From Perkinsus olseni (taxonomy: Eukaryota > Perkinsozoa > Perkinsida > Perkinsidae), in NCBI GenBank assembly GCA_013115135.1, contig JABANP010000069.1, forward strand, positions 1 to 64,000: DNA of 64,000 bases, given 5' to 3'. Numbering within the stretch: the stretch's first letter is position 1; the number at the start of each line of letters is the position of its first letter. Below are positions 119-59,542 of this stretch, one piece after another. The notes under the pieces are model-generated. The model was not told where the DNA came from, ran no database searches, and saw only the letters and a program-made list of their open reading frames with translations. A program made the position numbers and the translations under genes.

Positions 119-1588
119 TCAACTACTAGGGGCATTTGCTGCTACAATATTTCGAACATGCTCCAAAACAACAGGGGAATCAGGGTCACCATTCAACTGC
201 AAACCAACACTTCTCTTATGAACTTCAACAACTTTATAACGGGCCTTGTCCTTAACGGCGGGATTACAACGGCGAACCCAGCTACCAACAGGGAAAGACT
301 TAAGATGGCCTTGAAGTTTTTTATCCTCCAAGTCCATAGTCTTCTGCATCACCAAGTCATCGACGGCAGCAAACTTTCGATCAAGAATGCTATTATAAGA
401 TCGCTGGAAGAACGTCTCAAACGCCGTTAGACCATTATCTAGAGGGACCAAATTGACACACCGGTTGACATAAGCCAAATGGACCGACCACTCCCGCTTT
501 TCAGCACGGCTCATCGTAGAGAACTTAGCTTTAACTGAGCCGATACATCGCTCAGCCTTACCATTCGAAAATGGCGAATGTCGGGGAACACCGCTCCAAG
601 ACACTCCTTGGCTGGACAACAGAGCGCGAAAGGTACGAGAAATATATCCTCCTCCGTTGTCACTCTTGAAGTGATGACACCACCCAATGCGCTCGCAGAC
701 ACCACTCACAGCCCGGCAGAGTTCACGAGCTTCTAGTGAACGTAGAGGAACCAACCAACAAAAACTTGACAGGGCGTCCACCAAAGCGACAAAATATCTA
801 AAGCCAAACCGGTCTTTAATCAGCATATCCCCAATATCAGAGTATACCGTACACCAGACTCCATCCAAATCAGCAGTGGAGTCACCATAAGAAGAGCGGC
901 CTCCAGAGGATGCGAGCTTGACCCTCTTCTCAACACACTGTGGACACTCCTTAATAATAGTCGCAGCAGCCTGCTTGAACTTAGGAGCCACAAAATCTCT
1001 AGTAAACAAATACTGCACATATCTCAGCGAACAATGACCATTCGTCTCATGGTAGTGTCGGGCAAAATTAGAGAGCAAGGTAGGATCGTTCGGCAGAAGG
1101 ACACAAAATCTAGGCGGAACAGCTTCACCGTCTCTAAAGCGACACTCCACTACTAGTCCGTGCCTATCCAACGCATACCAACGCCCTTCATTCTTCAGTA
1201 GTCGTCTAAGGTAATCATTCTTGGACTCGTTAGACAGGAAGTCTCTCAACTCAGAGATAAAGGAGTCGCCATCCTGTACAGACCTTAACCACTTCACCAC
1301 TTCATCTGGCTTTGCAGAGTCGATGTCCATCACTTGCGAGCAAACTTCCACAGGACCATTAATATCCGGCTCCTCCCCCAGTTCCTCGGAAGGGGCAGCA
1401 GTCTGTAAAGCCTTCAGATCAGTCGATGGAGTCGAAGAAGTAGTAGTAGTAGTATCTTCAACAGAGGAAATACCCCAAGAATTCAGCAGACGGCTTAATT
1501 CATCAGCCGCGGAATTATCAACACCCGCAATCTTTTCAAAAACTAAACGGACATTCATCTGATCAGAGTAGATGACGGATGTCTTCAA
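119..1588 (-). CDS. RNase H C-terminus plus integrase (second pol frame)
   Basis: This frame carries the integrase. A zinc-binding HHCC region (HETNGH, then CPQC) lies near residues 178-220. The DDE core has its first Asp in the SDIGD region, the second in SDNGG and the Glu in GKAERC (about residues 249, 308 and 344). The frame is open from 1594, but the codon at 1588 is TTG. The first ATG is at 1558, seven bases past the TGA that ends the upstream frame at 1563-1565. The first 35 residues (motif GVDNSAADELSR) look like the end of an RNase H domain whose beginning is in the upstream frame. Independent initiation at 1558 would therefore split RNase H; a +1 frameshift in the roughly 30-nt overlap would join it. 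Whether this shift is programmed or a mutation in this copy is open. Confidence 0.85.
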   Translation of the reverse strand: MKTSVIYSDQMNVRLVFEKIAGVDNSAADELSRLLNSWGISSVEDTTTTTSSTPSTDLKALQTAAPSEELGEEPDINGPVEVCSQVMDIDSAKPDEVVKWLRSVQDGDSFISELRDFLSNESKNDYLRRLLKNEGRWYALDRHGLVVECRFRDGEAVPPRFCVLLPNDPTLLSNFARHYHETNGHCSLRYVQYLFTRDFVAPKFKQAAATIIKECPQCVEKRVKLASSGGRSSYGDSTADLDGVWCTVYSDIGDMLIKDRFGFRYFVALVDALSSFCWLVPLRSLEARELCRAVSGVCERIGWCHHFKSDNGGGYISRTFRALLSSQGVSWSGVPRHSPFSNGKAERCIGSVKAKFSTMSRAEKREWSVHLAYVNRCVNLVPLDNGLTAFETFFQRSYNSILDRKFAAVDDLVMQKTMDLEDKKLQGHLKSFPVGSWVRRCNPAVKDKARYKVVEVHKRSVGLQLNGDPDSPVVLEHVRNIVAANAPSS

Positions 1589-4500: not shown

Positions 4501-5177
4501 TCAACATTACTAACAGTCTTCCTAGCATCCCGCCGATCTTGAGATGTGATGGGGCCTCCAACACCAGAGAAAACCGGCAGCAGACTGTCTATGCCAGAAG
4601 GCGTTGCTTCAGAAGCTTGGCCTTTTGACAATGAAGTAGAACTCGATTCGACCTTGACCGGTTGCACAGCTGGTTGGCTCCCAGAAGAAGAAGGGTTCTG
4701 AGGAGTCGGAGAGGACTGTCGATAGTAAAAAGGAAACCTGTCGGGAAAAGAGGGCTCGAAGATACTCGCTTTGTCAAAGTTCAAGAACTTCAACGCAGTG
4801 ATTTTCCTCGCCCTAATATCCCTTTCACGAGAGGCTTCAATGGAGTCGGACAATCCAAGGTCATCGATAAAGTGTGGCCAAACGTAGTCAAAGAAGTTAG
4901 TCAATAAGACCTCACTCGGCTTCGAAGAAAGCGTTGTCTCCAAGTAATACTCTCCACAACGCCAAATAAAGTCACCAGCCGAATCAAGAGTAATGTCCTT
5001 CTCTTTCAACGCGCCACCAACCATCGCCTGAAATTTGGGCATAATAATCCCAAGTCTTAAAGGCTTGCCCAAACATAAAGACTCAACATTGTCCAACACC
5101 AAATCATCAATCTCACTCAAGGGTAAGTCGTCGTTGTCTGAATTAGATGTCGCCCGAGGTGCCATATCGTGAGTCAT
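1563..5177 (-). CDS. gag-protease-reverse transcriptase-RNase H polyprotein
   Basis: A 1204-residue frame starting at ATG 5177. The N-terminal third is gag-like with low-complexity Ser/Thr tracts. A CCHC zinc knuckle (CHYCREAGHVKTNCP) sits near residue 446. The aspartic protease motif DTGATFNFIG is near residue 555. The reverse transcriptase has an F/Y-x-DD box in the form YLDD near residue 930. RNase H begins around LECDASS (about residue 1095) and shows the Glu (RREAW) and second Asp (SDSKSA), but the frame stops before the C-terminal Asp motif. That motif continues in the next frame. The reading frame is uninterrupted, so this copy may have been active recently. Confidence 0.9.
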   Translation of the reverse strand: MTHDMAPRATSNSDNDDLPLSEIDDLVLDNVESLCLGKPLRLGIIMPKFQAMVGGALKEKDITLDSAGDFIWRCGEYYLETTLSSKPSEVLLTNFFDYVWPHFIDDLGLSDSIEASRERDIRARKITALKFLNFDKASIFEPSFPDRFPFYYRQSSPTPQNPSSSGSQPAVQPVKVESSSTSLSKGQASEATPSGIDSLLPVFSGVGGPITSQDRRDARKTVSNVELLQGGSFSGKDDSRSIRRVLVYLRDLANEECWSALEYREMLKRQVSREARAVVHPVAIRTYAELVSELRREVSGLLTAYGRGDFDKLESWNSLLQLRRGKTEQLSAFAQRFENAQQEARCLGNEIDDSQSALQFASAVNGKWTLSAATLIGTGVSSLNDLVSRLISEERVFRRSQNGSLPSDSVTTTTTSATATPVSVTTTLRPSNVTSGGTVASNSTSDKICHYCREAGHVKTNCPKLALKEARLRSNESRPTKLSGGKPLDDGKPAPSKSPATTPSSDPKASAMVLCDEPSQSNQSTDIGSAIRKVEICFPPLSVATSHENFEKAALFDTGATFNFIGRPLLISLEDAGYPCSVNEEIRHSVTLADGTKVSSNGCVQLLIRYDGSLRQLSFHIVPSLSPGLFIGWEGIAALGVFIDAGDNKIICSSDALVEESRQTPLLARIGTIDEDFIPVKKFDDTCDPQDDRWFHLSSAPAYRMRVRKLRPDEPRDTEEQVYCFELDLQGAMRPIDGLTHSGDYSGKLIQRLSPEEKKLFHDEIGSYTDKSWWRKEPVDDDDDENAASDVSPFPPITVFPVRQPGKSTPIRPCCDCRGVNSISERAGYLSADVTTLTSRLLGSYRRGDSFCTLDCSRAFYRLRTNVRLPLRVAGVLYSSNRVIFGLCSGPSSLEFAMDYLLRYTASLSSRFHSVRYDVVSGSRKVHRAWVYLDDITLSGSFSDVMAFKKMLVMTASKFGFSFPDSKQEILTPDSGQKRVTHLGSLWGIEDGVLKCFCKRNTARFDELCRVPVRSKRQYFALAGLLTDYPVGHARSRLAVDVMRSIVGSYKGDWDAKLDLSDDHVRQLDKLISIVKDDFERPCQHSSASGDNATLECDASSVGFGYIFKLGSFESSRAKPFSKSQSAWHVNRREAWCILQGLLANLPLLEEFTADREAPLRLTIVSDSKSAISWLRDNHIYAKSVERLALRRMLNTLEDIRHLL

Positions 5178-5238
5178 TGATGTACCAAACCCAACTCTAG
5201 TGGATTCTTAGAGGAATCTGTTATTAATATTATTGAGC

Positions 5239-5339
5239 ATTACGCTCTACTAGCACAGCTTGTGTCCGATCTACGGAAGATATCAATTAAGGGACACATC
5301 CGCGCACAATTGAGGAAATAAACACAATGGATCACCACA
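5239..5339 (-). repeat. 5' LTR of the first retrotransposon (minimum extent)
   Basis: Exact repeat of 1-101. The inner end is uncertain because the partner LTR is truncated by the window. The LTR must end before the gag start at 5177, so its full length is between 101 and about 160 bp, unusually short. I could not identify a convincing tRNA primer-binding site between 5178 and 5238. Confidence 0.85.
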
Positions 5340-5899
5340 ATAGCCACCAAGTCACAGTCCCCTGCGGCAGTCAGCCGAAATCTCAGATTTCCGGCTTGTT
5401 GCCCATCATACGGCGACACTAATGATCCTCTGAGTTCAAGAGAGTCTCGTGAAGGGGCCGAACATTCGGGAGATCGGTGAAGGGAGAGAGAGTCCCTCTT
5501 CCCCGCTTCATTTTGTCCGGACGCCGACAACACTCAGCCTTACATATCGCAACACACCGGAGCAGAAGCCTCAAATGGTGGTCGCATAATACTCTCGGGT
5601 AAATGCGAATAAAGATGAGAGGACGACCGGCGGCCGCTGATCGGCCGCGGACCGAAAACTGAGCGGAACTATACACTGGCATGCATTCTGATGAATGAGC
5701 ACAGTGTAGTGCTTTCTCTGGTATAGAGCTTAGCATAGCTAAACGGTCTAGTGATGACAGTGAAAGAGGAAAAATGCAACTCTGCGGGTTCCCTATGTAC
5801 AGGAAAAGGCTATGAACTTGTTGGATCAAGCCCTGCTGAGCGCCAGCGTGTTGTCCTCGGATAGGGACAGGTACGGCGTCGTTCTATCGGCGGAGAACA
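5340..5899. other. no recognisable gene
   Basis: Host flank of the retrotransposon. Minus-strand open frames of 97 and 136 codons overlap in different frames and show no family resemblance. I see no repeat or RNA gene. Confidence 0.4.
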
Positions 5900-6606
5900 T
5901 CAAGGGCCGATCTCCTTCGAGTTGTAGATCACTCCACGAGCATGCACGCTTTGATCTCTGCAGGACCCGGTGTCAGCGGGCTTGGTAGTGAAGACGTTGT
6001 CAGCTTCGGTCAAGCCTCCCTCAAAGTCGAGCAAAACGGCGTCCACATAGTTGACGCTACCACCTACACATTCAACAAACATCTCAACCTGCAAAGATGG
6101 AAGAATCGCCAGATCAAGCTTGCGATTAATCTCCGTCCGCTCGTTGTATTTATAGATGCCGACAGTAAGAGGGGAGACCTCTCTCAAGAAGTGCAGCTTC
6201 CTACCAAGGAAGATCGTGTCGAAAGACAGCCTATTGTAGTTAGTCAGAGTCTTCAAGTCACTATCCAGGATAGTCTATCCTGAACAGCGTCTTCAGGTAA
6301 GAATCGACGGATAGCCCTACTCCAGGACCCAGGGTCCCTCAAGTCCACCCTGTAAGTGCCACGACCTCCCAAGAGAGGAAACTCAGGTGGGTCAACAAAT
6401 GCAGGCTGGCCAGGAACCTTGAATGTGAACTCAACTCCACCGTCCTCGTCGATATCGTAAGTTATGCGGTAGACACCAGCATCGTGAACGAACTTGCCGA
6501 AGTGCTGAGCCGTAGTGGCCGCGAGAAGCTGCGCGGTCATCCGCCAAGTCGAGAGAGACTTTACCATTGAGGGATTGAAGGTGATGTTCAGAGAGAAATC
6601 TGCCAA
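5900..6606 (-). CDS. hypothetical protein, probably two exons
   Basis: Two adjacent minus-strand frames (6606-6253 and 6256-5900) read like consecutive parts of one protein of about 230 residues: first a stretch with alternating hydrophobic residues (FTFKVPGQPAF, GTYRVDL), then one rich in beta-type segments (LTVGIYKYNE, VEMFVECV). The sequence at the join contains CTGACTAAC followed by AATAG, a good branch-point and acceptor pair, so a very short intron is likely. I could not find a donor that keeps phase, so a frameshift is the alternative. I do not recognise the family. Composition and the lack of stops on both sides make real coding likely. Confidence 0.45.
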
Positions 6607-8550
6607 ACATCGCAGGTAGCGAAAAGATCAATAGTAAGAAAATTGCAGCAGCGTGGCAGACTGAAGTGGAACCGGAAGCTTGCTAAGAGCTTGCTTTGAA
6701 GAATGGTCTAGCCTGATGCTATAATAAAGCCAGCCGCCTGGGGGGCGCTTGAGCTACAAGCCCAGCACGCATGCACATCATTCCCGGAAGGACGTGTGAT
6801 ACGCGTAGCTTCAGGGTCTTAAGATGGCAATGCATTTTGCGACATAATCTCCGAAGACCTGTTGGGATGTGACATCATATTCGGAGGGCAGCCGACGGAA
6901 TTAGCAGTGATGCCAACGCAAGACCTTAGAGAAACTAGCAGGAGCCCACTGAAGCTTCGCGATCGACCTCCGAACGCATACTTACCGTAGCTATGCTTAG
7001 CCCGATGACACATGCCTGCAAATACTCATGAGTAGAGAGGCAGGAGGCAGTGTAGACTATTCAACAGCAATCCTCCGGAAGTAGCTGGTTAACACGTATC
7101 TGCCATTGGATAGGAGCTATTCGCTGTGGATGCTACGGCTGCCTCGACCACCAAATTGGTTGTACCAACAGTGGCGACGCACCCTGGTGGAACCGTGTCC
7201 CGAAAGCGAGGGGGTCACGAGGCGTGACGCGAAACGGATTACAATACAATAGGTGCCGATTCATTATGTATAATCCATATCACAGGTCGTGACCTTGGTC
7301 TTCAAAGAAAAGTTGCATGGCCTAGGAGGTCGGATGGGCTGGAATAACCCAACCCATTTAAAACCATGGGTTCTGATAGCCAACACTGGCTGTATCTCCC
7401 CTAAGTCTACTCATTGTGATGGACTTGCCCGCCGAGCTCAGCTTAGCGAGCTATGTCGCTGCTGCTGTACGTTACTGTCGTCCGTAGACACGCAAGATCA
7501 TCATGCCAAGATAGGAAGCGTGGATAGGTTTTTTTCTGAGCCTACTCTGAGAGTAGTACTCTCCCGAGAGGAGATCCCTGGGGACCTATGCGCTAAGCTC
7601 AATACTTCAACGCCCCATTACCATCTCACCCACTTCTCTTCTCCCATGGGAATCATGCGCCGATTGCTTCTTGGCGAGAATTTCTCGCGCACGCGTGTAC
7701 TGCCCTATTCCCTATGTGATACAAGGATCTGTCTGACCGTGACCGGGCCAGAGTATTTGGACAGTCTATTTCGGTAAGGTAGTTCGTTCGTATGTGCAAT
7801 GGACTCCGCTTGGCTCATCCATTCAGCAACATTTTATTTCCTCGTGTCTGGGCGAGTTGACCAGAGCTCAGCTTCAAACTCAAGTGCAGCTGACGTTTGT
7901 AGAAGTAGAAGCCTTTTTTACAGTGAGTCTGCCGAGGATTCTTTCGCGTGCCATTGATGGATTCCCGCCAACTGTGTCGACCTTTCGTCCTATCTTTTAT
8001 CTGTATTTGCCTTCGCGTTGCCAGAATGATTATCATCTTCTACGTATACTATCAATCGGCGACTCGAAAACGTCGATATCGTTATAATGGCGAGCTCAAG
8101 TGTATCCGTCAGACCTCGAGAGAGCAGGGTCAGGAAGCAAGTCCATCCACTTTCCATTCTGCGTTGACTATCTAAACCCATTGAAGAGGCAGCGAATGGT
8201 GCACCATTCACATGCACCAAGAGCGAACGGCGCATGCAGAGCAACACTCAGGCAGCACGTCAGCCGCTGGAGATTCCGGTTCATCCTGTGCACTTCACAA
8301 ATGTTATCGCCTAGTAGGCTGAGCCTGCACAGTGTGTAGGGTAATTCAGTGGGGCGAACACTTATCACGGAACCTTCACATCAATGTCAAGCTGAAGCTC
8401 CGCCATCTCATGATTCTGATTCGTGGACTCTGGAGACTCTGCCCAGACATGCTGAGCGACCACTCCATTTCTCCTCAGCGAGATGTCTCTTGTCCCGTAC
8501 CCACCACAACCCACACAAACTGACGACGCAACATCCGAACTTTCAGCACA
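6607..8550. other. no confident gene
   Basis: The longest frame is 162 codons (7289-7777, plus) and has no recognisable motif, many Cys/His and no supporting splice structure. I see no repeats. It may hold regulatory sequence or exons too short to recognise. Confidence 0.35.
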
Positions 8551-10640
8551 TCACTCAGACGCAGGCTTCGGCAATTGGACCTCATCTCGGCCAGTAACAG
8601 TTGTATAGAAATTTTTGAATCCCTCCATGGGGCCTGAGCTACCCACATCTCCTATCGGCGATGATGGCTGCGATGAGGCTTCCTCGGCCGTGAGAGTCAT
8701 TGTGAACAGCACTGGATCCGAGTTCACTATTCTTAGCATCTGCATAAACGCGTGCTAAGTACTTCGTGCGATTTCTACGAGTGCAGCCCACCTCAGTCGT
8801 CTCGCTTATTTGATTACATGCGGATATTATACCGCCAAATTCGAGTCTGTAATCTTCGCAGTTCCACCTTATGAAGAAATGCTCCTTTGCCAGATGCAAA
8901 TATCGATGTAGCCCCCGATAGGTAATCGTCGCTCACCTGAGCCCCTCCGTGGTGCAGGACCGTACCGGAGCTTCCACTGGTAAAATACCAGCATAGTATC
9001 GACGCTCAGGTCGCACACAATCTGTTCGGCCTAGCTGTAGTGAGTGGTCTCCAGCTGGGAGGACCTGAGAGCTGTTCAGGTGAGAGCCCGCCAGAGTTCG
9101 AGTTGCCTGGACATGCGAGCTGCGTAATAGCGAAGCAACAAGAGCTCTTCATCTCGACTAGTGAATGCCCGGTGTGCCCTCAAAACACATCTGGGTTGTT
9201 CACTAGTCGAGGCCAATGTCCCTCCCAGAGCTGCTATTGGAAAGTGCTTTGAGACAGTTTATGCATAGACTCTACGCAGAAACTGTCACAACACTTGAAG
9301 CTCGACTCAAGCTATATGCCAGAGAGCTTGAGTCGAGCTTCAAGTTATATTAACGGGTCCTGCTTGGCTAACGTGGTTTACGAAATCGAGCTGCTCGACC
9401 ACGGGCGAAGCGTAGGCTGCCGGAGTTGGAAAGAACCTCATCGCATCAGGTTCGCATGGCTTGAAACATTGATACTCAACTTGTGTGACACAAGTTGGGT
9501 CGAATGTCGCGCTCGGGACTCAGCGAAGTTCTCCGTGCTCTTCGTTGCTCTACAACCCCTCCAGCTCACAGCTGTTCCCTGGTTTGCTGAAATCTGGGCT
9601 AGTCGACCAGGTAGCGCTCCCAAGGCCGATCTATCGAACGCGTTATGGCCGCCTTCGATTTCAAGGGCGCCCTGAAGGTTCAGGAGGGGCCTATGGAGCA
9701 CCCCGCATTCCCACGACTGAGGCGCGAGCTGAGTTCACTGAGGCGGAATCCCTGCTTACCATGGCGAGGCAGTCGGGATCCAGAAGGATCGGGCGGAACT
9801 GAGACGACAGGGCCAGTTCGAAGTGACGAGGAAGTCAGCACTCTACCTTATTAGGCAAGCGCATAGCATACGCACCCGCACTCTCTTTAGAGGTTCCCCT
9901 GGTTGCAGTCAATAAAGAATTAATGATGGAGAATGTGTGATCCAATCGGCCACCATAGTTTATCGATCCAGCGACGGCGACCAAGGGGGCGGCTTCGTCA
10001 TCGCCTGAGGACCATAAGTTCGTTCAACGAGTGCGGACCATCCACGTTTACCTCCAGAGTACTCATCCGGGTGGTGGTTGTAATGGTAGGCTGCATATAG
10101 CATGCACTTGTCCAGGTCAGTATTACACTGAGGAAATACAAGAGTCTGCAAGATAGCAAGATGAGCCAGCATATCGTGTTTACTTCGTCGGAACATTTGA
10201 TGACTCTTAGTGGCTCTCCGAATTTGCTCGATTGGAAGCTCTGTATCACTTCCGGCCGTACCTGAGCCGAGCACACAACTCTAATCAGCCGTTACGTCGC
10301 CATGAGAGAACATCTCCCAAACGCTGACGTTGACCGGACCAACCAGCTACGTGTGACAGGGAAGATGGAAGCCCGATACTGTAGGATGGAAGTTCGTACC
10401 GAGTCGAAGTCTCCGATGATGACGTCTGGCACTAGTTGGCCTCTGAACTGATCGTAAAGTCTGTTGGAACCGCCATCTGCGCATATCCTGACTCCTGAGA
10501 ATCGTCAAAAAATAAATCTTAGCCGAAAACCGCCTCCCACCGGGTTGCGACGAGCTCGACGGCGCGAATGTGAGCGTAGTCAGGAGCACTAGGAGGGAAT
10601 ATGCCAGGACATAATACCACACCAACTCGAACTGAGCGCA
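8551..10640 (-). CDS. TPK1: thiamine pyrophosphokinase, at least six exons
   Basis: TPK transfers pyrophosphate from ATP to thiamine to make the cofactor TPP. Family motifs appear in order on the minus strand. ICADGGSNRLYD and VIIGDFDS (ATP/Mg-binding N-domain) lie at about 10480-10385. VRPEVIQSF starts after acceptor CTCAG near 10266. CSDE joins CNTDLDKC across a short intron (about 10125-10180), giving the TDLxK motif. YGGRLDHTFSIINSLL is at about 9965-9915, and VLPAGDH to CTTEGLR in the exon 9064-8937. WNCEDYRLEFGGIIS starts at 8867 after an ATAAG acceptor. A tail with NSDPVLFTMTL ends at a stop near 8551. The intron between CTTEGLR and WNCEDY joins exactly in phase. The first exon is uncertain: the frame before EAVFG has no ATG, so the 5' end may lie further upstream. 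The intron before 9064 is about 0.8 kb and full of stem-loops. Confidence 0.85.
9153..9497. other. cluster of perfect stem-loops inside a TPK intron
   Basis: Successive exact inverted repeats: 13-bp arms at 9153-9165/9199-9211; 8-bp arms at 9253-9260/9280-9287; 21-bp arms at 9293-9313/9325-9345 with an 11-nt loop; 6-bp arms GAACCT/AGGTTC around 9434-9454; and a 10-bp-arm palindrome at 9477-9497. The arms differ in sequence from one another. The region lies between TPK exons and has no credible coding frame. Confidence 0.7.
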
Positions 10641-12918
10641 GTTAATGTGATGAGATGATATCATGTCGAATACCCGCGAGTTGCCCCGCCAAAAATGAAA
10701 AGATATTCCACATTCTCTCAAGGGTTCAATTCGCCTTAAGAGCTACTCAGGGATTTTCGATAAGGTTCATTCGGGTGTTCCTGTACAAAGTATCAGAAAC
10801 AGCAGTAACACATAAGTTATATCGAGTATGGTGGAAAAGCGTCGCATCAAACTAGGAAAGGCTACAGGGATTTCCCGCGCATTCACAGGCGGCTGGCAGT
10901 GCCATAGAGAAACACACAGTCCGAGCGAATCGGGGAGTCTAGCAGCGTGGCTCCGCACGCCCAAGACGCAACATTGTAGTTGAGCAAGGGCACAGCCATG
11001 GAACCCATATTGTAGTTGTGCAAGGGCACAGCCATTGAACCCAAGCTTTACGCTAGTTGATGACTCTATCAGTGTTATAGATCGAATGCCAGCAGTCCAT
11101 TCAGCCAAACACGTATGTCAGTCCAGCGGTCGTGCTCATGCAAGACAGTGCGCGAGCTGAGATCCGCCACAAACGGTCGAATCGGCATGAGAGTAACGGA
11201 AGGGTTCCGACCGGCTAGTCAGAGCCGGAGAGGACAATTACCCGCAGTGTCCCACAGCTGCTTCATGGCTGTCCCTCGAGGGAAGGGAGAATTCAAAACG
11301 ATGACGGCGAGAGGGCGGACCGATGACCGAAGCCCTGAAAATTAGGTAGTCTCGTTGACACGATGGAACCTTATTTCTTTCAGGTGGAGACGCCGAGAGC
11401 TCATTTCACGAGAAGCATACCGGAAAGAAGGTCATTCTCTTGCTGCAAACGTTCCCACATAACTTTCGACCGCCAAATCACTATGACCTTCAAACTGATG
11501 ATCCACAGTCGCTCATACACGCACAAGCGATGACTACAGCGCGACCGATTCAGGAGACCCCGAGAGAGCTAGCTCCTGCCCGCTTTCTATTACCCGACGC
11601 CGAGCTCCGCTGAAGGAACGGCCAAAGCTCCCAAACGGGCATGTGAAGGTGGAAAACCAATCTCGAGAGTTACTCGATCGGCCATTCGTCGCCAGCCAGG
11701 ACTAGAGAACACAACGGTCGAGATCATGTCACGAAACATGGGCAAAAACTCAGTACGTCATTTGGGTTGCTGAAAATTGGGGGGAACCATGCCTTGGGTT
11801 TTCCACTCTTCCAAGCTCGTTCGGCGCAGTTCCGCCTGCAAACGCTTCTCCATGTCTGACCGAACGAGAAAGAGTGAGCGCGGGTCGCAGACGACACATT
11901 GTGGATGCCGTGCTGGCTGAGACGCGTTCATACCAAATCTCGCCGAACGAGCAGAAGATTAACAGAGGTAGCAGCATACTACAGACCCGTAGCAATAGAG
12001 TTAACCCAACCCCAGAATACTACCATCGCTATCCTCTCCCCTCCTATACCGCCATACTGCTGCTCCCAAAGCTAACGCCGCCGCCACTGCTGTGATGGCT
12101 GTCGAGCGAGCCCGAAATGACGGCATGAAATCCTATACTACCAAGCGTATCGAAGAAGCAGCAGCCTGAAGGTGGTCGATTCCCCTCAGGTTATCGCCTC
12201 GAGCACGCTGGCAGTACATTCTAACGACGTCGCGATCATTTTTCACTGCCAACCAAACACCAAAATCGTACAAGTATTTTACAAATGCTATTTGTGTATG
12301 CCACATTAGACTTATGTAGGGCCCTCGGTTACCAACACTGACTTCACAAAATGGGGGAAAACGGAGTCGACGAAAATCGAACGGCGGCAATTACGATATA
12401 GCTTTTCCCAAGCTCAGAACGAACAACTCCGCTCAGCTACGATAAAAGTAGCAGCAGAGGCGTCGCAAGAGTCAACTGGTGACCACAGAATCGCAGCGGC
12501 GCTCGGTGAATCCAAGATGCCCGTTTAAAATGCCATACAACAATGACGATGAGCATCTTGGGAGAGCGCCGATCGGGCAAAATTGTAGATAAGGTTATCA
12601 TAGCCATAAGGATACTGCTCCTGCCACAGGAGCGCGTCCACTTGATACGTTAGTCAGAAAAGCAGTGCAGCGGAAAAGGAGAAATGCTCAGAAAGATGAT
12701 ACCGCGCGACGCCGGCTGTGGTTAAGATGGTCGACGGTGTGCTCATCAGCCAATACTCTGCTACTTTCCGATGGTACCTGAAGGGAATAAACGCACGGTG
12801 AGATATCTGCGCCCGAAGAAGCGATGTCGCCCAAAATGATAAGTACACGGGGGCTTGGCTCTGTTATCAGCACGGATCAAATGCCCACCGACGTCGAGAA
12901 TTACTCAAACTCACCATC
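10641..12918. other. no confident gene
   Basis: Contains only short frames. A roughly 34-bp unit with the core GCAAGGGCACAGCCAT is repeated twice in tandem at about 10973-11041. A minus-strand frame at 11995-11750 starts with a hydrophobic stretch (MLLPLLIFCSF) that could be a signal peptide, and 12390-12133 (minus) reads plausibly as an exon. I cannot join them into a gene. Confidence 0.3.
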
Positions 12919-43664: not shown

Positions 43665-44577
43665 TCAATTAAAAGCATCCCTCGGAACCACTTTCAAATT
43701 TCCGAGAAATTCCGACTTGAGAACAGGACGACCCTCCCAATCAGTGCCAACCTTCAGAGTAGCCACCGATCCAGAAATTGCTACGATTTCACAGACTTGA
43801 TCCACCAACCAACGGGTATCCAATTTGCCACGACGATTAAAGTTGTAACGGACAACATAATCACCAACGGCGAACTTCCTGAAGTCACGCCTTGCCAACT
43901 GAGCACCCGCCAGAACTTGACGAGACGCTAATACGCGATCAATACTTTCAGCAGTATTTAATTGGTTTCAATCAGCATGTCGATTATGGAACTGTAACAT
44001 AAATGGTTCAACGTCCCGATAATTCGGAACCGGGAACTCAGTCATAGTAGAAACGAATTTAGCAGCCTCAGGAGTCATCACCCGATCATCATAATTAGGT
44101 GGTAACGCACGACCATAACAGAAATGCAACTCAGCGGGGAAGATATCAGAGTCGGCCGAGTGACGATAAACCTGGTTGATAGTCCACGCAGCCCGATCGA
44201 TAACATCAAACCACTTCAAAGTACGGGACTGATCACCGAGCAGTAAGGCACGAACTATCTGCAAGAACGTCTTATGCAAGGTTTCGTACCAACCATGAGC
44301 TCGTTCACACCTCGGAGGAGTCTGGTACCAACGAATACCACAGGACTTGAGCCAGGAAACTACCCTACCATCTGAGAAACGTTGATCCTGATCACTCACT
44401 ACTACAAGTGGAAAACCACTTTCGTAGAAAGTAGATTGCAACGCCCTCAGCGTGCTAACACCATTAGCATAATCCGGGCACTTCTTGGCTACAAGAAATC
44501 CGCTGAAAGAGTCAATACATATCATCACCATAACAGCATCATCCGCACTGGTATGATTACCGTACGGAGACTTGAAG
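43665..44577 (-). pseudogene. integrase, catalytic core and C-terminal domain (BEL/Pao)
   Basis: Contains the second half of the integrase: CIDSFSGFLVAKK after the first Asp, VVVSDQDQRFSD (second Asp) and RCERAHGWYE (Glu), then an SH3-like end (FAVGDYVVRYNFNRRGK...WLVDQ). The first part of the domain is beyond an insertion at 44578-45434. A TGA at about 43966-43968 splits core from C-terminal domain in frame; both sides remain in the same frame. The same TGA is present in the left tandem unit. Confidence 0.88.
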
Positions 44578-45443
44578 GGTGTACCGCGATTCGTCCATGA
44601 TCGATTGGTCCACTGCAACTTCGATCCAAGATTGTTTCGTACAAATTTCGGTTCATTCATGATCTTTTCGTACATCGAAAAAGTGTATGTTTCGGTCACG
44701 ATTTTTTCATCCGTAACCGGTTTCGTACACGATTATTTCGTCCATGGGCGGTTGATCCAAAGATATGCTCGTTGTGATCTATTCGGCCACGATCTTTTCG
44801 AAAAAAATTCATTCGTCCAATAGTGGTTCGTACATATGAAACTGACGACACGCAAATGTTTATCGAAGGAAATGAACCCACAGCCTCTGGAATACCAGCT
44901 TGAGCTGCTAACCTACTCACCTGTAAGACTCCTTCTGAATTCCGACAAAGTACCGCCCATGCGATACCCAACCTATTCAACTTGGCTCCATTCATGTTTG
45001 GAGCCTCTAGGCACTGGGATCATCACAGAGACAACCTGATGTGGGGGAGTGCTAGATCGTCACCACTGGTGACTCACCAGTAGAGGCGGCGGTGAGATTA
45101 TTAGGTCGTAGTAGGTGATGGTAATAGCGGAATTGGTAGAGCTCCCGTGGATGAAGTAGAGCTCCCGTGGAGTAGCGTGGATGAAACTCACGTGTACGAA
45201 AGGCTTGTACGAAAAGCCCTGGAAGAAAGAAGCGGATCTAGAGCATGATTGGACGAAACGGCGTGGATGAAAGAATCATGTACTTAAGACCCGTGGACGA
45301 AAGAGGTGTGTATGAATGAGGATGTACGGAAGTAACATGGACGAAACAAGTAGGATGAACCCTACCATGGACGAAACAGTCGTAGACGAAACCTGCAATG
45401 TATGAAACAGCAATGTATGAGTGGAGGTTCCCCGGACTTGAAA
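44569..45443. mobile_element. foldback-like element with 15-bp-unit arms (copy 2), target duplications included
   Basis: The insert proper is 44578-45434 (857 bp). It is bordered by GACTTGAAG (44569-44577) and GACTTGAAA (45435-45443), a 9-bp duplication with one mismatch. Removing insert plus one duplication takes out 866 bases and puts the two integrase frames exactly in register through GPFKSPYG. The left arm (44578 to about 44850) and right arm (about 45170-45434) are inverted relative to each other and consist of degenerate 15-bp units (TTCGTCCATG/TTCGTACA type, reverse CATGGACGAA). The ends GGTGTACC and, inverted, GGGGAACC match partly. The core carries tRNA-like pieces and a hairpin. 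The same element, in opposite orientation and about 99% alike, is at 49897-50855. No transposase: non-autonomous. Confidence 0.85.
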
Positions 45444-46041
45444 GGTCCCACGAAATCACAGCTCAATAGTTCCCAACAGCGGCTAGACCTCAATACAGAT
45501 CTGCCGACCTGGTGATGGAACGTACGATGAGACCTATTAGCAATACATACTCTACAACTACGTTCATATCGGCGATACTCCTTCAACGAACCACAATAAA
45601 ATATACGATAAGTACGCAAGTATATCTTATAATATCCTATATGCACAAATAGTTCATGAAGTAATCCAATTATCTCTCGACATCTAGAACTCGGCACAAT
45701 CAGAGCATTGGTGACTGCATGACGCACCTCACCATCAACCACTATATATAGCCGACGTTCACGGTCGCACGCATAATCACCATCCAATAATCTCTTCAAG
45801 AAGACATCGTCTTTTTGCGAATCTCGAATAGAGTCAACAAGTTGTGGATCGGGTTCATATATCAGCTCATCGTCTTCCTCAACAGCAGCTTCCTCTCCCG
45901 GAACAGCACATAACACTTCACCAGTAGGGTCTCTGTTCTTAACGTCGATTGCAATCTTCAAGGCTTCATCTTCCTCAAATGGACAACGGACAGGAAGACC
46001 TCGAGAATACGGGTCAGCGGGATTAATCCAGGATAACTTGT
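45435..46041 (-). pseudogene. integrase N-terminal part (BEL/Pao)
   Basis: Begins at the end of RNase H (NKLSWINPADPYSRG) and covers the linker, the zinc-binding region (HELFVHIGYY..., CRVCIANRSH) and the start of the core (LLSCDFVGPF, first Asp). It is separated from RNase H by the insertion 46044-46864 and from the rest of the core by the insertion 44578-45434. The frame matches both neighbours once these are removed. Confidence 0.88.
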
Positions 46042-46043
46042 TA

Positions 46044-46864
46044 GCCCCAGTTAAATTCCTAAACGGCAGGCGCGTTATGCAGCGTGCGTGTGTTGATGCG
46101 TGCGGATCGTTGTGCAGCATATCTTCCTCGCGAAACGGTCGCTGCCACATTCAATAAGAGAAAGTTTGTTGATCGAGTCGCAACAAGGGCACTATCTCAA
46201 TTTAGAGAAGCATTATCCCTTAAGGAGGACTGACGCTCAAGATGAGCCCCTCAGTTCACCACGGGCGACGCGCGACACGGGCGCTTTGTCAGACCACACT
46301 CACCCGGCCAACTTTCGGACCCTAAATAGGCTTCCGGGGGAGGACGATGGGTGTGGCTGGCAAGGCTCTCGCGGTCCTTTCTCCTGCCAGGAGAGTTGTG
46401 GGGGAGCGGGCTGTCACTGGCCCGCAAGGCCTGCAGTACAAGCGATGTGACATTACTGTGCACGGCACGCGTCAAAGCACGCGACCGGCTCCTAGGCGTC
46501 GCGATTGCAGTAGCCGCAGTTACGTCTTGTGTAACCCCCGTATGTCAGCCATGTCAGCCATCAGCGAAGCCGATGCTGCCAGTATCGCCAGCGAAGTCGC
46601 TCAAGGGCCAGCGGACGTCATCGTTCAGCCCGCGGAGTTCGCGGTCAATGCGGGCGCTAACCCCGCCGGCAGGGGAGATCACAACGGTGATCACATAGCG
46701 GGAGGCGCTGACAACGCAGCAGTTGGTTTGGTCCCTAACGCCGAGGCTGTGCTGCCTGCCAAGGTCGTCGACTTCGTCTTGAAGTTGACTCCTGAAGCCC
46801 AAAACGACGTCTCCGGCTAATATCGAATACCCGAATACCCGGCTAATATCCGGCTAATAGTGGC
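46044..46864. mobile_element. 821-bp nested insertion with TA duplication and short-repeat end
   Basis: Interrupts the RNase H/integrase junction. TA flanks both sides (46042-46043, 46865-46866); removing 823 bases restores the frame through HISGEINKLSW. The ends are weakly inverted (GCCCCAG... and GCCACTA...). The right end is built of short repeats (CGAATACC twice, then CCGGCTAATAT twice and GGCTAA). The interior is GC-richer and carries a plus-strand frame. It could be a non-autonomous TA-inserting DNA element, or a non-LTR fragment with a repetitive tail. Confidence 0.65.
46347..46820 (+). CDS. Ala-rich hypothetical frame inside the 821-bp insertion
   Basis: 157 codons. The second half (SAISEADAASIASEVAQG, GADNAAVGLVPNAEAVLP, LTPEAQNDVSG) is Ala/Val/Asn-rich and unlike anything else here; it could be the N-terminus of a gag or ORF1-type protein. 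It ends just before the repetitive tail. The start at 46347 is not secure; an internal Met at about 46541 precedes the conserved-looking part. Confidence 0.4.
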   Translation: MGVAGKALAVLSPARRVVGERAVTGPQGLQYKRCDITVHGTRQSTRPAPRRRDCSSRSYVLCNPRMSAMSAISEADAASIASEVAQGPADVIVQPAEFAVNAGANPAGRGDHNGDHIAGGADNAAVGLVPNAEAVLPAKVVDFVLKLTPEAQNDVSG

Positions 46865-46866
46865 TA

Positions 46867-47548
46867 ATCTCACCACTAATATGACGAACCTCTCCACCGC
46901 CACGAAATAACGCGAGTGCAACCTTCCTGACAACCTTCCGCTCATATGCCGGCAACTGCAAGGTAGCCTTATGACTGGTCAACTTCGAATCATCTACAAC
47001 CGTAGATTCGAACTCCTCACAGGATTCCTTTAAGGCTCGTAACTCCCGACGAAGACGGAAGTAGTTACACTCACTATCAGTGAACAAGATCGGAGTTGGA
47101 GATATCAGTGATGGTAGCCACGTATCTCTCCATAACGTCAACGTCTCGGTAAACAGCTCGAGCACATCGTCACATGCTGTCAGCTCCTTCCGCACAATAC
47201 TCCACGACGCTCTCACCGGGGGTATCAGACGAGCACGGCCTCTAATGAAGACGAGTCCGACAGTTAGCAGTGCGCTACCACACGCGAACATACTCGAATC
47301 AGCGAATAAATACACTTCCCTCAAATCTTGTAATGAGGGAGCGAGCAATCGAGGAATAGTAGGGGCATCAATAAACGACTGCATCAACCGTTCAATCTCC
47401 CTATACGTCGAAACGGAAACAAAGTCGTCCCACTCCAAGCCCTTACTAATCTCAGAGCGGAGAGTACATCTCATCGCTAACAGTATATTACTATGCGATC
47501 CAAGAGGGTCAAAATGCGAGTTAATAACAGCCAATATATCCCTACAGG
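46867..47548 (-). pseudogene. RT thumb and RNase H (BEL/Pao)
   Basis: Starts after the insertion 47549-48294 with the INSHFDPLGSH region, then RNase H with active-site residues in LFADSSMFACG (Asp), VRKELTACDD (Glu) and LFTDSECNYF (Asp), ending at VRHISGE. The open frame extends into the arm of the inserted element up to 47948, producing a Tyr/Glu-rich pentapeptide-repeat extension that is not part of pol. Confidence 0.88.
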
Positions 47549-48303
47549 GATGTTCACGACTCGTACACCGAAAACTCGACTCGTGTCTCGAATACTCGTA
47601 CACCTTCGACTCGTACACCAAATATCCGTACACCGAAGACTCGTACATCAAAAACCCATACACAGAAAACTCGTACATGTAAAACTCGTACGCAAAATAC
47701 TCGTACACATAATACTCGTACACAGAACACTCGTACACATAATGCTCGTACACCGTCATTTCATACACACACCCACTTTCAACTCGTACACTGTCATTTC
47801 GTACACCCTGCGAAAATTTTTTAGGCAAGTCGCGGAGCCGCTCTCCCGCGTTTAGCTGACGGCTTATCTCCTCTCTGACAGAGAATCTCTGTACAAAGGA
47901 TCGAACCCACAATCTTTTGATTGGGAGTTCCGCTACCTTAACCTCCATACCACTTACACTACTGAATATTTACTCACAGGTTGGCGCAAACTAATCGCTC
48001 TCTGTAGACAATATTACTTCCTCCGCTCCGCCATTGCTCTCAGCGCGCGGCCCAAAAATGCGACTCAAGCAGCATAGTGTACGAGTCGTGCTCGTGTACG
48101 AGTTGACGGTGTACGAGTTTTATATGCATGAGTTTTACGTGTATGAGTTTTATGTGTACGAGTATTATGTGTACGAGTTTTAAGTGTACGGAATGACGGT
48201 GTACGGATCCAAGGGGTGAACGAGCATTCAGTGTACGAGTCGTGTACGAAATGAAAGTGTACGAGTTTTCGGTGTACGAGTCGTGATACACCCTCCCTAC
48301 AGG
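47540..48303. mobile_element. foldback-like element with 15-bp-unit arms (copy 1, second subtype)
   Basis: Insert 47549-48294 (746 bp) between two copies of CCCTACAGG (47540-47548 and 48295-48303). Removing 755 bases restores the pol frame. The left arm (to about 47815) repeats CTCGTACACNNNAAA every 15 bp; the right arm (from about 48070) is its inverse, GTGTACGAG every 15 bp. Both arms share CACGACTCGTACACCG at the tips. The core (47816-48069) contains a tRNA-like segment. The 15-bp period, 9-bp duplication and tRNA-like core match the copies at 44578 and 49897, but the unit sequence differs, so it is a related subtype. Confidence 0.85.
47888..47960 (-). other. tRNA-like core of foldback copy 1
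   Basis: The minus strand reads GTGGTATGGAGGTTAAGG (D-arm/box A-like), a hairpin CAATC-AAAA-GATTG at the anticodon position and GTGGGTTCGATCC (box B). The loop is four bases rather than seven, so it is not a working tRNA. An internal Pol III promoter is possible. Confidence 0.5.
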
Positions 48304-49786
48304 TGACATTGCTAACGGTCTTACCGTCAATCTCCACAATTTCCAACGGAGGCAGAGGCAAGTCGGCCTTTTGGGCACGCAATCGATCATTCGAAAGCCA
48401 ATCCAGCCCCAACACATGAGACTCCTTTCCCGGTGGTGGCGGTCCCAACTGGCGCTTACGCTCCTGCGAATTGAATCCACGAACTACGCAGGCTCTCAGA
48501 AACGCCTCTAAACCGCTCTCAAGACCCACACGGGAATTAGAGCCCATAACAATATCATCCATGTAGGGTTTCATGAACACATACAACAACAGATCTCGCG
48601 CATCTATAGCGGACCCCTTACCTTCTCGAATACGGAGAAGCGCAGCTTTGATATGACCAGGCAGCTTATGCTCAGCGAGGGTCACCAATCGCTTGAGCGC
48701 ATCATTCAAGCACGCTGGAGAGTGAGGGCTACCCATCGGAGGGCCCCTCAACCGATAAACTTCAGATTGCCATACCAGACAAAACCAGTAACGACATTGC
48801 GGATCATTCTCCAACATATAAAAGGCGCACTCCAAATCCAAAATCCCCACATACGGGAAAGCTCGAAACATAAAGAGCGCTGGCAACACCCCTCGCTTAC
48901 TCCGAGCTAAAGCCGACCTATCCAACTGTCCTTGCCCACTGCCAATCACTCCCTTATAGTGCAAGCCGTTAAGTACCGGACGCACCGGAGACGACTTCGA
49001 ACTTGGGTTCAAGACAGGGAAGTGGTCGATAATACTTGCCACCAACGGATATTCACCTGGCTTCAACCGGACAATAGCCCCAATCGACTCATATCGCTCA
49101 AAGACCGCCGAATAATCAGATAACAACCCCGATCGCACCAGGGGTTGTACAAGTCGACGATCTTTATCGAAACTCTGACGCAGAGAGCACGAACTAGCCA
49201 GTGCATTCTTCAACCCTTTTGATGTCCACGGAACACCATACGTATATCGCAAGGCAATACCAGACGCGCCATTCACGTCAAAATGTGCAGACGGCGTCAA
49301 TCCACGGAACAGGGTACGATTATCGAATTCGAGAGCTCCCTCCGCCTCAACGAGCGGACTCACCGGAATTCCATTCTCAGCATCATTCTCAGGTTCATTC
49401 CCGCTCAACTCACGCCGAGGTGCTACTACAGCTTCGGACGAGTTATCTCCGGAAGGCTCGTCCCCCAGCTCAGCAGCATCAACATCGTACACACGCTCTC
49501 GGATACTCCGAGATGGACAAGAAACCTCATTCAACACGTTATCGTCCAGTGGATCACAACTCGCTACGTTCGGCGAACACAACTCAAAGAAAGCGTCAGA
49601 TTGAACAGATTCCGTGACCCCAGTCTCTACAGCCGCTACGGTCGAGACAACACCTTTAACAGTTTCAGGCAATAGAGCAGCTCGCAACAAAATCTCATCA
49701 TTACCGAGATACAACAGCAAGGCTAACGATCGCAATGCTTGCATACCCAGAATAACTTCACACGATAAGTCAGCCGCCACCAACAA
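48304..49786 (-). pseudogene. protease end and reverse transcriptase (BEL/Pao)
   Basis: Begins with LSCEVILGMQAL (end of the retropepsin fold), then a variable linker and RT with PVLNGLHYKGV, FAFYMLENDP-type catalytic region (LDLECAFYMLEND), GPPMGSPHSPACLND and the YMDD box in KPYMDDIVMG, then HVLGLDWLSNDRL. The frame runs on into the inserted element at 48294 down to 48065. Confidence 0.9.
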
Positions 49787-49833
49787 CCATATCGAAACGG
49801 ACTTATGCGGAGTACAGACTACAACCTGTATGG

Positions 49834-49854
49834 CCTCCTCACAGTGTGAGGAGG
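49834..49854. other. 21-nt palindrome at a frameshift in the protease region
   Basis: CCTCCTCACA-G-TGTGAGGAGG. The frame entering from the upstream protease part and the frame of the downstream RT part disagree by one around this palindrome, even after the nested insertion is removed. Confidence 0.55.
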
Positions 49855-50165
49855 GTGAGGCTCACACATCATTTTAGAAGCATTAGCCACAGTAACCGGG
49901 GAACCTCCATTCATACATTGCTGTTTCATACATTGCAGGTTTCGTCTACGATTGTTTCGTCCATGGTAGGGTTCATCCTACTTGTTTCGTCCATGTTACT
50001 TCCGTACATCCTCATTCATACACACCTCTTTCGTCCACGGGTCTTAAGTACATGATTCTTTCATCCACGCCGTTTCGTCCAATCATGCTCTAACTCCGCT
50101 TCTTTCTTCCAGGGCTTTTCGTACAAGCCTTTCGTACACGTGAGTTTCATCCACGCTACTTTTGG

Positions 50166-50197
50166 ACATATGTGACGCCGCGGCGTCACATATGTCT
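50166..50197. other. 32-bp perfect palindrome in foldback copy 3
   Basis: Arms GACATATGTGACGCCG and CGGCGTCACATATGTC with no spacer, followed at about 50207-50228 by GCCGGCGG-CTGCG-CCGCCGGC. Absent from copy 2, where this stretch is deleted or rearranged. Confidence 0.8.
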
Positions 50198-50242
50198 AAA
50201 GATAGCGCCGGCGGCTGCGCCGCCGGCTTCACCATCACTATC

Positions 50243-50317
50243 CTCCCTTACCCCGATTCGAACCTGGGACCATCGTCATGCAAGTCGGGAGCTCTACCAA
50301 TTCCGCTATTACCATCA
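50243..50317 (-). other. tRNA-Ala-like sequence in foldback copy 3
   Basis: The minus strand has TAGCGGAATTGGTAGAGC (good box A and D-arm), a CTTGCAT anticodon loop (TGC, Ala) and CCCAGGTTCGAATCGGG (box B). Anticodon and acceptor stems are incomplete. Copy 2 keeps only the 5' half, with AGAGCTCCCGTGGATGA duplicated next to it. Confidence 0.55.
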
Positions 50318-50864
50318 CCTACCACGACCTAATAATCTCACCGCCGCCTCTACTGGTGAGTCACCAGTGGTGACGATCTAGCACTCCCCCACATCAGGTT
50401 GTCTCTGTGATGATCCCAGTGCCTAGAGGCTCCAAACATGAATGGAGCCAAGTTGAATAGGTTGGGTATCGCATGGGCGGTACTTTGTCGGAATTCAGAA
50501 GGAGTCTTACAGGTGAGTAGGTTAGCAGCTCAAGCTGGTATTCCAGAGGCCGTGGGTTCATTTCCTTCGATAAACATTTGCGTGTCGTCAGTTTCATATG
50601 TACGAACCACTATTGGACGAATGAATTTTTTTCGAAAAGATCGTGGCCGAATAGATCACAACGAGCATATCTTTGGATCAACCGCCCATGGACGAAATAA
50701 TCGTGTACGAAACCGGTTACGGATGAAAAAATCGTGACCGAAACATACACTTTTTCGATGTACGAAAAGATCATGAATGAACCGAAATTTGTACGAAACA
50801 ATCTTGGATCGAAGTTGCAGTGGACCAATCGATCATGGACGAATCGCGGTACACCCACAGTAAC

Positions 50865-53031: not shown

Positions 53032-53175
53032 GGGCGCTAATTTTTCTCTCATCGGCGCTAAACTTCCTCTGCTTGGCGCTAGTCTTTCTCACATTGGCGC
53101 TATTCTTTCTCTCATTGGCGCTATTCTTTCTCTCATTGGCGCTATTCTTTCTCTGATTGGCGCTATTCTTTCTAA
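53032..53175 (-). repeat. 21-bp minisatellite
   Basis: About seven units of ATTGGCGCTATTCTTTCTCTC with decay at both ends. The minus strand is open through the array and would encode RKNSANE repeats (about 53191-52990). It adjoins the right end of the BEL/Pao element, and the frame runs into the target site, so the retrotransposon may have inserted in or beside a repeat-coding gene. Confidence 0.75.
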
Positions 53176-59461: not shown

Positions 59462-59542
59462 AAAAACCCCACGCCGCGATTCGAACCCGAGTCACAGTGC
59501 CCTAAACCGTATGTATTAACCACCTAAGCTAACGGGACATAC
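59462..59542 (-). other. tRNA-Pro (AGG)-like sequence, in an intron of coiled-coil copy B
   Basis: Box A TAGCTTAGGTGG, anticodon stem ACGGT/ACTGT (five pairs with one G-U) around loop TTAGGGC (anticodon AGG), box B GGTTCGAATC, then GTTTTTG. The acceptor stem pairs poorly and the T-stem has a mismatch, so it is probably a pseudogene. The matching intron of copy A has no such sequence. Confidence 0.55.

What the first reader, a model, noticed from the sequence alone, without database searches (positions are those of the whole stretch)
44569..50864. A family of foldback-like insertions with 15-bp-unit inverted arms, 9-bp target duplications and tRNA-like cores
Seen: three inserts (44578-45434, 47549-48294, 49897-50855) have arms of about 220-270 bp built of degenerate 15-bp units around TTCGTCCA / CTCGTACAC, inverted with respect to each other. 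They are bordered by 9-bp duplications (GACTTGAAG/A, CCCTACAGG, CACAGTAAC). Two of them restore the retrotransposon frame exactly when removed. Two are near-identical and inverted; the third has a different unit but the same architecture. Each core holds tRNA-like box A/box B sequence. Known: foldback elements carry subrepeat-built inverted arms, and 9-bp duplications are typical of Mutator-type transposases. Inference: these are a non-autonomous DNA element family, perhaps mobilised by a MULE transposase, that has captured or retains tRNA genes. I know of no described family with this exact combination.
Basis: partly seen in the sequence, partly recalled or inferred. Interest (0 to 1): 0.92.

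Follow-up and report, generated by a model that had tools for sequence, protein, structure and literature searches.

The report
Foldback jumping-DNA families in Perkinsus
Three stretches of DNA that jumped into an old retroelement belong to related families of short, non-coding jumping elements in a shellfish parasite; they have repeat-built mirror-image ends, look like dependants of a Mutator-type transposase, and often carry a degraded tRNA-like piece followed by a hairpin.

Summary
The three inserts are real DNA-transposon insertions in a Bel/Pao retroelement of a Perkinsus genome, probably P. olseni. The inserts belong to two families (A, B); two more (C, D) share the tip plan. A Mutator-like (MULE) transposase frame lies between two D arms (contig C551), and its closest paralog lies beside a C arm (C24). 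Both copies are damaged or one-sided, and no complete autonomous element was found. Merlin transposase gave no match. Best reading: foldback MULEs of the Phantom/Muta/Tm1 type and their short derivatives. No core tested is a tRNA gene for Rfam or ARAGORN, but box A/B-like sequence is present; it resembles tRNA-Leu in C, at C24 and in one of two B copies tested, and is weak in A and D. In the 29 of 55 copies examined that have both, a long hairpin follows box B. Verdict: a new variant of a known kind.

The parts
44569..44576 (.). 8-bp target duplication GACTTGAA, left of A1
   Evidence: empty site on C108
44577..45434 (+). Element A1, family A (858 bp), tips GGGTGTACC...GGTTCCCCG; lacks box B and the hairpin
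44577..44840 (+). A1 left arm, degenerate 15-bp units around TTCGTCCA / TTCGTACA (inner limit approximate)
   Evidence: lag-15 z 3.9
45170..45434 (+). A1 right arm, the units inverted (inner limit approximate)
   Evidence: lag-15 z 6.4
45435..45442 (.). 8-bp target duplication GACTTGAA, right of A1
47539..47546 (.). 8-bp target duplication TCCCTACA, left of B
47547..48293 (-). Element B, family B (747 bp), tips GGGTGTATCACG...CGTGAACATCCC when read on the minus strand
47547..47810 (+). B arm, 15-bp unit ACTCGTACACnnnnn (inner limit approximate)
   Evidence: lag-15 z 12.1; unit profile
47810..47845 (.). Remnant of the AATTTTTTAGGCAAGTCGCGGAG hairpin that some other B copies have whole
   Evidence: read; compare
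47898..47946 (-). tRNA-like segment of B with box B GGTTCGATCC
   Evidence: no Rfam or ARAGORN tRNA; not significantly like the 7 real tRNAs tested
48076..48293 (+). B arm, the units inverted (inner limit approximate)
   Evidence: lag-15 z 10.1
48294..48301 (.). 8-bp target duplication TCCCTACA, right of B
49889..49896 (.). 8-bp target duplication ACAGTAAC, left of A2
   Evidence: locus L005
49897..50856 (-). Element A2, family A (960 bp), full length
49897..50160 (-). A2 arm, 15-bp period (inner limit approximate)
   Evidence: lag-15 z 6.8
50154..50207 (.). A2 hairpin, two 27-nt arms 89% complementary
   Evidence: (pair I25)
50255..50308 (-). A2 tRNA-like segment: box A TAGCGGAATTGG and box B GGTTCGAATC
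   Evidence: 0 of 300 shuffles reach the box score; similarity to real tRNAs not significant
50595..50856 (-). A2 arm, 15-bp period (inner limit approximate)
   Evidence: lag-15 z 4.4
50857..50864 (.). 8-bp target duplication ACAGTAAC, right of A2
   Evidence: locus L005

Best explanation
The inserts are short, non-autonomous foldback DNA transposons moved in trans by a Mutator-like (MULE, probably Phantom-like, FLYWCH-type) transposase of the same genome. Shown: shared GGGTG tips, arms with a 15-bp period, 8-bp (rarely 9-bp) duplications, empty sites in a related host copy, four families with one tip plan, and a MULE frame with its DDE residues lying between D-family arms, whose nearest paralog lies beside a C-family arm. 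Inferred: the 15-bp units are repeated transposase-binding sites that make a specific end out of a short motif, and movement is by cut and paste. Inferred with less certainty: the tRNA-like segment and the hairpin after it derive from a polymerase III unit.
For: Duplications: A 22 of 27 (20 of 8 bp, 2 of 9 bp), B 9 of 16, one D copy with CGAAATAG (read). Empty sites by coordinates on C108, insertion lengths 866 = 858+8 and 755 = 747+8; C108 also has its own A copy whose flanks overlap by 8 bp where the window is empty. A blind screen for exact 8-bp duplications with GGG/CCC tips over the window and the 82 loci then held returned A and B copies and one other pair, window 3658-11042. Tips align: A GGGTGTACCGCGATTCGTCCA, B GGGTGTATCACGACTCGTACA, C GGGTGTATTACGATTCGTACA, D GGGTGAGTATCGTATCGTACA. 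MULE link: PF10551 has 38 matches; at C551 inverted arms 97% alike flank the MULE frame and are 96-97% identical to the short D copy L085. Closest paralogs of that MULE are C24 44%, C159 43%, C424 42%; the C24 frame ends 353 bp from a 249-bp C arm found at 91-99% in 39 other scored places. The two D residues, the E and the C..H motif are kept. The P. olseni protein P0001, 100% identical over 97% of the C24 query, has MULE plus a weak FLYWCH match. Precedent: Muta1, Muta5, Tm1 (passages).
Against: No complete autonomous copy was found. At C551 the frame lacks an N-terminal part, the right arm is broken 27 bp from its tip by a repeat (inferred) and the outer flanks do not match. At C24 no second arm or matching duplication was found in the 8.5 kb read beyond the arm. 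C159 and C424 share the MULE gene with C24 at 81-82%, but homology stops before the arm, so arms are not shown there. Chance neighbours occur: at C867 a B copy with its own 8-bp duplication sits 0.8 kb from a MULE match. Only 20 of the 38 MULE matches had their surroundings (1.5 kb each side) scanned for tips and units; apart from C24, C551 and C867 they gave at most isolated motif hits. 5 of 27 A and 7 of 16 B insertions lack an exact duplication. The C copies read (L058 and two in L059) show no clear duplication (by eye). FLYWCH is below its curated cut-off.
Confidence: 0.76

Rival explanations
1. Foldback elements mobilised by a different transposase that makes 8-bp duplications (hAT, P, Sola1, KDZ/Zisupton, Merlin); the MULE next to the arms is a chance neighbour in a transposon-rich genome.
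For: GG tips and 8-9 bp duplications also fit Merlin, and Merlin-related sequences are reported from 3 of 8 Perkinsidae genomes, among them two preserved frames in P. marinus without identified ends (PMC8101967, passages). Arms are common, 105-173 first-look candidates per family query, so chance neighbours occur, as at C867. hAT, P and Sola transposases were not searched.
Against: Merlin domain PF12762: 0 matches here, and its control rang in one of 14 genomes. KDZ PF18758: 0 matches, but no control rang. The MULE at C551 lies directly between inverted arms, and its closest paralog is beside an arm of a second family.
Confidence: 0.14
2. The units are polymerase III-transcribed, tRNA-headed elements (SINE-like) that acquired inverted arms.
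For: Box A/B-like signals in several cores; similarity to tRNA-Leu in C, C24 and one of two B copies.
Against: Arms reach both ends, tips are fixed, and duplications are 8-9 bp; retroposed SINEs have variable duplications and a 3' tail (recalled). No tRNA called in the cores tested.
Confidence: 0.03
3. Arms are expanded coding minisatellites, or an assembly artefact.
For: The B units are tandem enough to be called by a tandem-repeat finder.
Against: Many copies in different places with the same ends and duplications, and empty sites in a related host copy.
Confidence: 0.01

Closest known systems
Muta1 and Muta5 (Aedes aegypti foldback MULEs; grouped with Phantom in PMC6446971, passages)
   Same: 8- or 9-bp duplications, arms with 12- or 15-bp subterminal tandem repeats, over 200-300 non-autonomous derivatives, those of Muta1 with variable interiors (PMC5225508, passages)
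   Different: Animal host; a complete, active autonomous element is known for Muta1; the passages shown mention no tRNA-like segment with a following hairpin (the paper was not searched for it)
Tm1 (root-knot nematode Mutator/foldback family, Phantom subclass)
   Same: Arms of 13-15 bp repeats with asymmetric outer motifs, FLYWCH-MULE transposase, 8-10 bp duplications, and one class with a histone hairpin motif in the core (PMC3169594, passages)
   Different: Mostly 9-bp duplications; the core motif is a histone hairpin; the word tRNA occurs 0 times in the main text
Drosophila FB / FB-NOF
   Same: Long inverted arms of sub-repeats, transposase carried by a minority of copies (recalled)
   Different: 9-bp duplications and another unit (recalled)
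Galileo (P superfamily)
   Same: Foldback-like arms whose tandem repeats hold further transposase-binding sites (PMC3688188, abstract)
   Different: P-type transposase (same abstract); 7-bp duplications (recalled)
Dada transposons of Perkinsus marinus
   Same: DNA transposons of this genus linked with tRNA genes (PMC3706591, passages)
   Different: They insert into small-RNA genes with 6-7 bp duplications; here the tRNA-like sequence is inside the element

Membership tests
Phantom/Muta-type foldback MULE | 8-10 bp target duplication without fixed sequence | tested here: met
   A 22 of 27, B 9 of 16 distinct insertions
Phantom/Muta-type foldback MULE | Long inverted arms with 9-15 bp subterminal repeats | tested here: met
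   Lag-15 signal in the 9 arms tested (z 3.9-12.1), not in the two cores tested
Phantom/Muta-type foldback MULE | MULE (PF10551) transposase encoded between the same arms | tested here: inconclusive
   C551: arms on both sides, but a damaged copy; C24: arm on one side only; none for A or B
Phantom/Muta-type foldback MULE | FLYWCH zinc finger before the MULE domain | tested here: inconclusive
   P0001: E 5e-4, 20.5 bits against a cut-off of 23.6; the two non-Perkinsus hits carry FLYWCH+MULE
Phantom/Muta-type foldback MULE | Place in the Phantom clade of a transposase tree | not tested
   No reference set of Phantom transposases was at hand
Drosophila FB | 9-bp duplication | tested here: not met
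   8 bp; exact 9 in 2 of 27 A and 0 of 16 B insertions
Merlin | GG tips and 8-9 bp duplication | tested here: met
   (one A tip reads C, not G: CGGGG)
Merlin | DDE_Tnp_IS1595 transposase in the genome | tested here: not met
   0 matches at E 0.001; relatives reported in other Perkinsidae
KDZ/Zisupton | KDZ transposase in the genome | tested here: inconclusive
   0 matches, but no control genome rang
hAT, P, Sola | Their transposases in such elements | not tested
tRNA gene | Recognised by tRNA models | tested here: not met
   No core hit with Rfam (window stretch and 42 of 86 loci) or default ARAGORN (window and 86 loci); real tRNAs outside the elements were found
Dada | Insertion into a small-RNA gene with 6-7 bp duplication | tested here: not met
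   Window copies lie in retroelement coding sequence with 8-bp duplications

The most novel reading that the evidence does not exclude
A polymerase III-like unit (tRNA-Leu-like boxes, then a hairpin whose stem often begins TTTAG and acts as the 3' end) is a kept, working part of several foldback MULE families, so these cut-and-paste transposons make a structured non-coding RNA of their own, comparable with the histone hairpin in Tm1 elements.
Probability: 0.14. Interest if true: 0.75.

Novelty: new variant of a known kind. Interest (0 to 1): 0.5.

Why it matters
It would extend the foldback-MULE plan (sub-repeat arms, 8-9 bp duplications, many transposase-less derivatives) to Perkinsozoa, relatives of dinoflagellates; the main text of the MULE survey PMC6446971 holds the words Perkinsus, Alveolata and dinoflagellate 0 times. 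If the tRNA-like box plus hairpin module is kept for a reason, it would be a case of cut-and-paste transposons that carry their own polymerase III-type RNA unit. The correction of the duplication length also matters, since classification leans on it.

Tried and rejected
Merlin: fits by tip and duplication, set aside for lack of a transposase match, although relatives are reported in other Perkinsidae. KDZ: no match, but the test had no positive control. Coding minisatellite: refuted by empty sites. tRNA genes captured whole: not supported. Loose ARAGORN settings gave 770 hits over all records and were ignored. C867 looked like a MULE with arms, but the B copy there has its own duplication. C24 right end: a TACACCC site at L082:4914-4926 was considered but has no matching duplication; left open. 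hAT, P and Sola transposases were not searched (12 of 12 genome searches used). My first conservation profile of family B mixed both orientations of the same copies and is discarded; one search replaces it. A search for work on tRNA-derived MITE or foldback elements listed 4 papers, none on point by title and abstract start.

Rows dropped before counts: A, 29 copies with both ends, 27 distinct flank pairs (L017/L019 and L020/L024 counted once). B, 23 loci with both ends; 2 dropped for another start of the tip, 1 for a cut flank, 4 as duplicate flank pairs, leaving 16; profiles and motif counts use 22 of the 23. Each genome DNA search scored only the 40 best candidates of 115, 173, 133 and 105 for the A, B, C and D queries, so copy numbers are lower bounds.
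Full report
Where it lies. The window is part of a 61.5-Mb assembly of 968 contigs. A spliced-leader pattern that I recalled for Perkinsus is found 178 times with up to 2 mismatches, against 1 for the reversed control. A MULE frame on contig C24 is 100% identical over 97% of its length to a protein annotated in P. olseni, and the contig that encodes P. olseni protein P0004 has the same length, 76,069, as contig C159. P. olseni is therefore the likely species. The inserts lie in a Bel/Pao LTR retroelement: Peptidase_A17 above its cut-off, and RVT_1, rve and integrase zinc-binding matches below theirs, in the broken frames.

The observation. A1 (44577-45434) and A2 (49897-50856, reversed) are one family, B (47547-48293) another. 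In each of the nine arms tested, lag 15 is the strongest or second strongest, with z of 3.9 to 12.1 over dinucleotide shuffles; the two cores tested give 0.4 and 0.8. The ends are GGGTGTACC...GGTTCCCCG (A) and GGGATGTTCACG...TACACCC (B, plus strand).

Duplication length. Five A and five B insertions have none that is clear. With reshuffled right flanks the means are 0.74 and 0.62, about what copies drawing their own flank would give. Contig C108 carries a related retroelement copy: query stretches on both sides of A1 and of B meet there with overlaps that place the 8-bp target once, giving insertion lengths 866 and 755, that is element plus 8. A2 is absent there too, next to a small length difference. 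C108 has its own A copy, whose flanks overlap by 8 bp at a place where the window is empty. So each of two related copies holds insertions that the other lacks.

Families. The genome searches scored the 40 best of 115 candidates for A, 173 for B, many of them partial, 133 for C and 105 for the D query, which also carries flank repeats; 33 places other than C551 hold a D arm in the listed rows. Mean pairwise identity is 0.96 among 29 A copies and 0.91 among 22 B copies. C is a sister of B: its arm is about 80% identical to the window B right arm over 219 bp and its tip 95%. D has tip GGGTGAGTATCGTATCGTACAG, and one short copy with an 8-bp duplication was read. The four tips share GGGTG and place TCGT(A/C)CA at the same distance. 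A profile of the B/C unit (ACTCGTACACnnnnn) gives 5 hits in the D left arm (shuffle mean 0.69, maximum 3) and 3 in each A arm (means 0.21 and 0.42, maxima 3 and 4), but only 1 to 2 in the other three D arms (maxima 2-3); kinship of the A and D units with B is thus suggested, not proven.

The transposase. PF10551 has 38 matches; PF12762 (Merlin) and PF18758 (KDZ) have none (the latter without a positive control). At C551 a MULE frame lies between inverted arms 97% alike that belong to family D. The copy is damaged: the frame lacks an N-terminal part, a repeat splits the right arm 27 bp from its tip (inferred), and the outer flanks do not match. Its nearest paralogs are at C24, C159 and C424 (42-44% identity). 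The C24 frame has a 249-bp C arm 353 bp beyond its end, but no second arm in the 8.5 kb read beyond it. For C159 and C424 homology ends before the arm, and I could not read that flank. DGTF, DFE, C..H and the last E are conserved in C551 and its relatives. This is good but not conclusive evidence that MULEs of this group move the foldback families; only 20 of the 38 MULE matches had their surroundings scanned.

The cores. No tRNA is called inside an element by Rfam in the window stretch and 42 of 86 loci or by default ARAGORN in the window and all 86 loci; both find real tRNAs elsewhere, though in one control stretch Rfam found one of two ARAGORN calls. A box A plus box B score is reached by 0 of 300 shuffles for A2 and for the window B, 3 for C24 and for D, 6 for C, 11 for another B copy and 22 for A1; against 400 pieces of the window itself, A2, the window B and C24 (21.8) exceed the 99% point (18.6), C (17.1) the 95% point (13.9), and D, the other B copy and A1 (13.9) only equal it. 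Local alignment to seven real tRNAs of this genome finds tRNA-Leu(UAA) best for B (L081), C and C24, with 0 of 200 mononucleotide shuffles reaching the score; the best tRNA for A (10 of 200), the window B (12 of 200) and D (22 of 200) is not significant; no correction was made for taking the best of seven. Exact box B is in 24 of 29 A and 14 of 22 B copies. A long hairpin is found in 23 of 29 A, 8 of 22 B, 2 of 3 C and 1 of 1 D copies, and lies downstream of box B on the same strand in all 29 copies that have both (A 20, B 6, C 2, D 1); its stem begins with TTTAG in 13, 6, 1 and 1 of the copies with a hairpin (where trimming leaves 13 B copies with box B). Copies of a family are not independent, so this amounts to three family-level observations (A, B/C, D). 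In family B the tRNA-like stretch is kept in about 88% of copies with 94-95% agreement, much like the rest of the core before it, while the stretch between it and the hairpin is variable.

How it probably works. By analogy with Muta1 (excision and reinsertion in yeast with 8- or 9-bp duplications; [quoted passage not shown] PMC3688188, abstract), the 15-bp units are read as repeated transposase-binding sites. The tRNA-like piece and hairpin are either a captured fragment inherited by the families, like the varied interiors of Muta1 derivatives and the histone hairpin of Tm1, or a kept polymerase III-type unit. The first is the default; the second is the bold reading.

Known or new. Architecture, duplication length and transposase class are those of foldback MULEs (Phantom/Muta/Tm1). 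I saw no report of them in Perkinsus in the rows listed by three searches (25 of 44, 20 of 210 and 25 of 514 papers; titles and abstract starts only), and the MULE survey has none of the words Perkinsus, Alveolata or dinoflagellate in its main text; Repbase could not be consulted. The shared tRNA-like plus hairpin module is the feature that I could not match. Hence: new variant of a known kind.

Noticed in passing
window 46029-46864: A fourth insertion in the same retroelement, absent from C108, with 5-bp duplication TAATC; window 46027-46817 is found at 100% on C515 and C588, and most of it on C493. Looks like a solo LTR.
   Followed up: partly
L046 (C197): A B element nested inside an A element (the A ends lie 1582 bp apart there).
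   Followed up: no
L080, L084 (C551): Chimeric locus: B-like arm or core sequence on both outer sides of the D/MULE element, with non-matching flanks; possible ectopic recombination between foldback elements.
   Followed up: partly
L082 (C24) 4921-6321: 99% identical repeat on C58 that starts almost where the MULE insert seems to end; L082 5793/5797-6322 is repeated at C24:10829-11359 and on C426, as expected of LTRs.
   Followed up: partly
window 119-5207: A second retroelement-like region: an integrase core match in the 491-aa frame, no Pfam match in the 1214-aa frame.
   Followed up: no
window 53033-53173: 21-bp tandem repeat, 6.7 copies.
   Followed up: no
L017 and L019: A-family copies with the same flanks and target GTTGAAAC on two contigs: a duplicated host element or the same site hit twice.
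   Followed up: no
window 59465-59538: ARAGORN calls a tRNA-Pro here that Rfam does not find at E 1; perhaps a degenerate copy.
   Followed up: no
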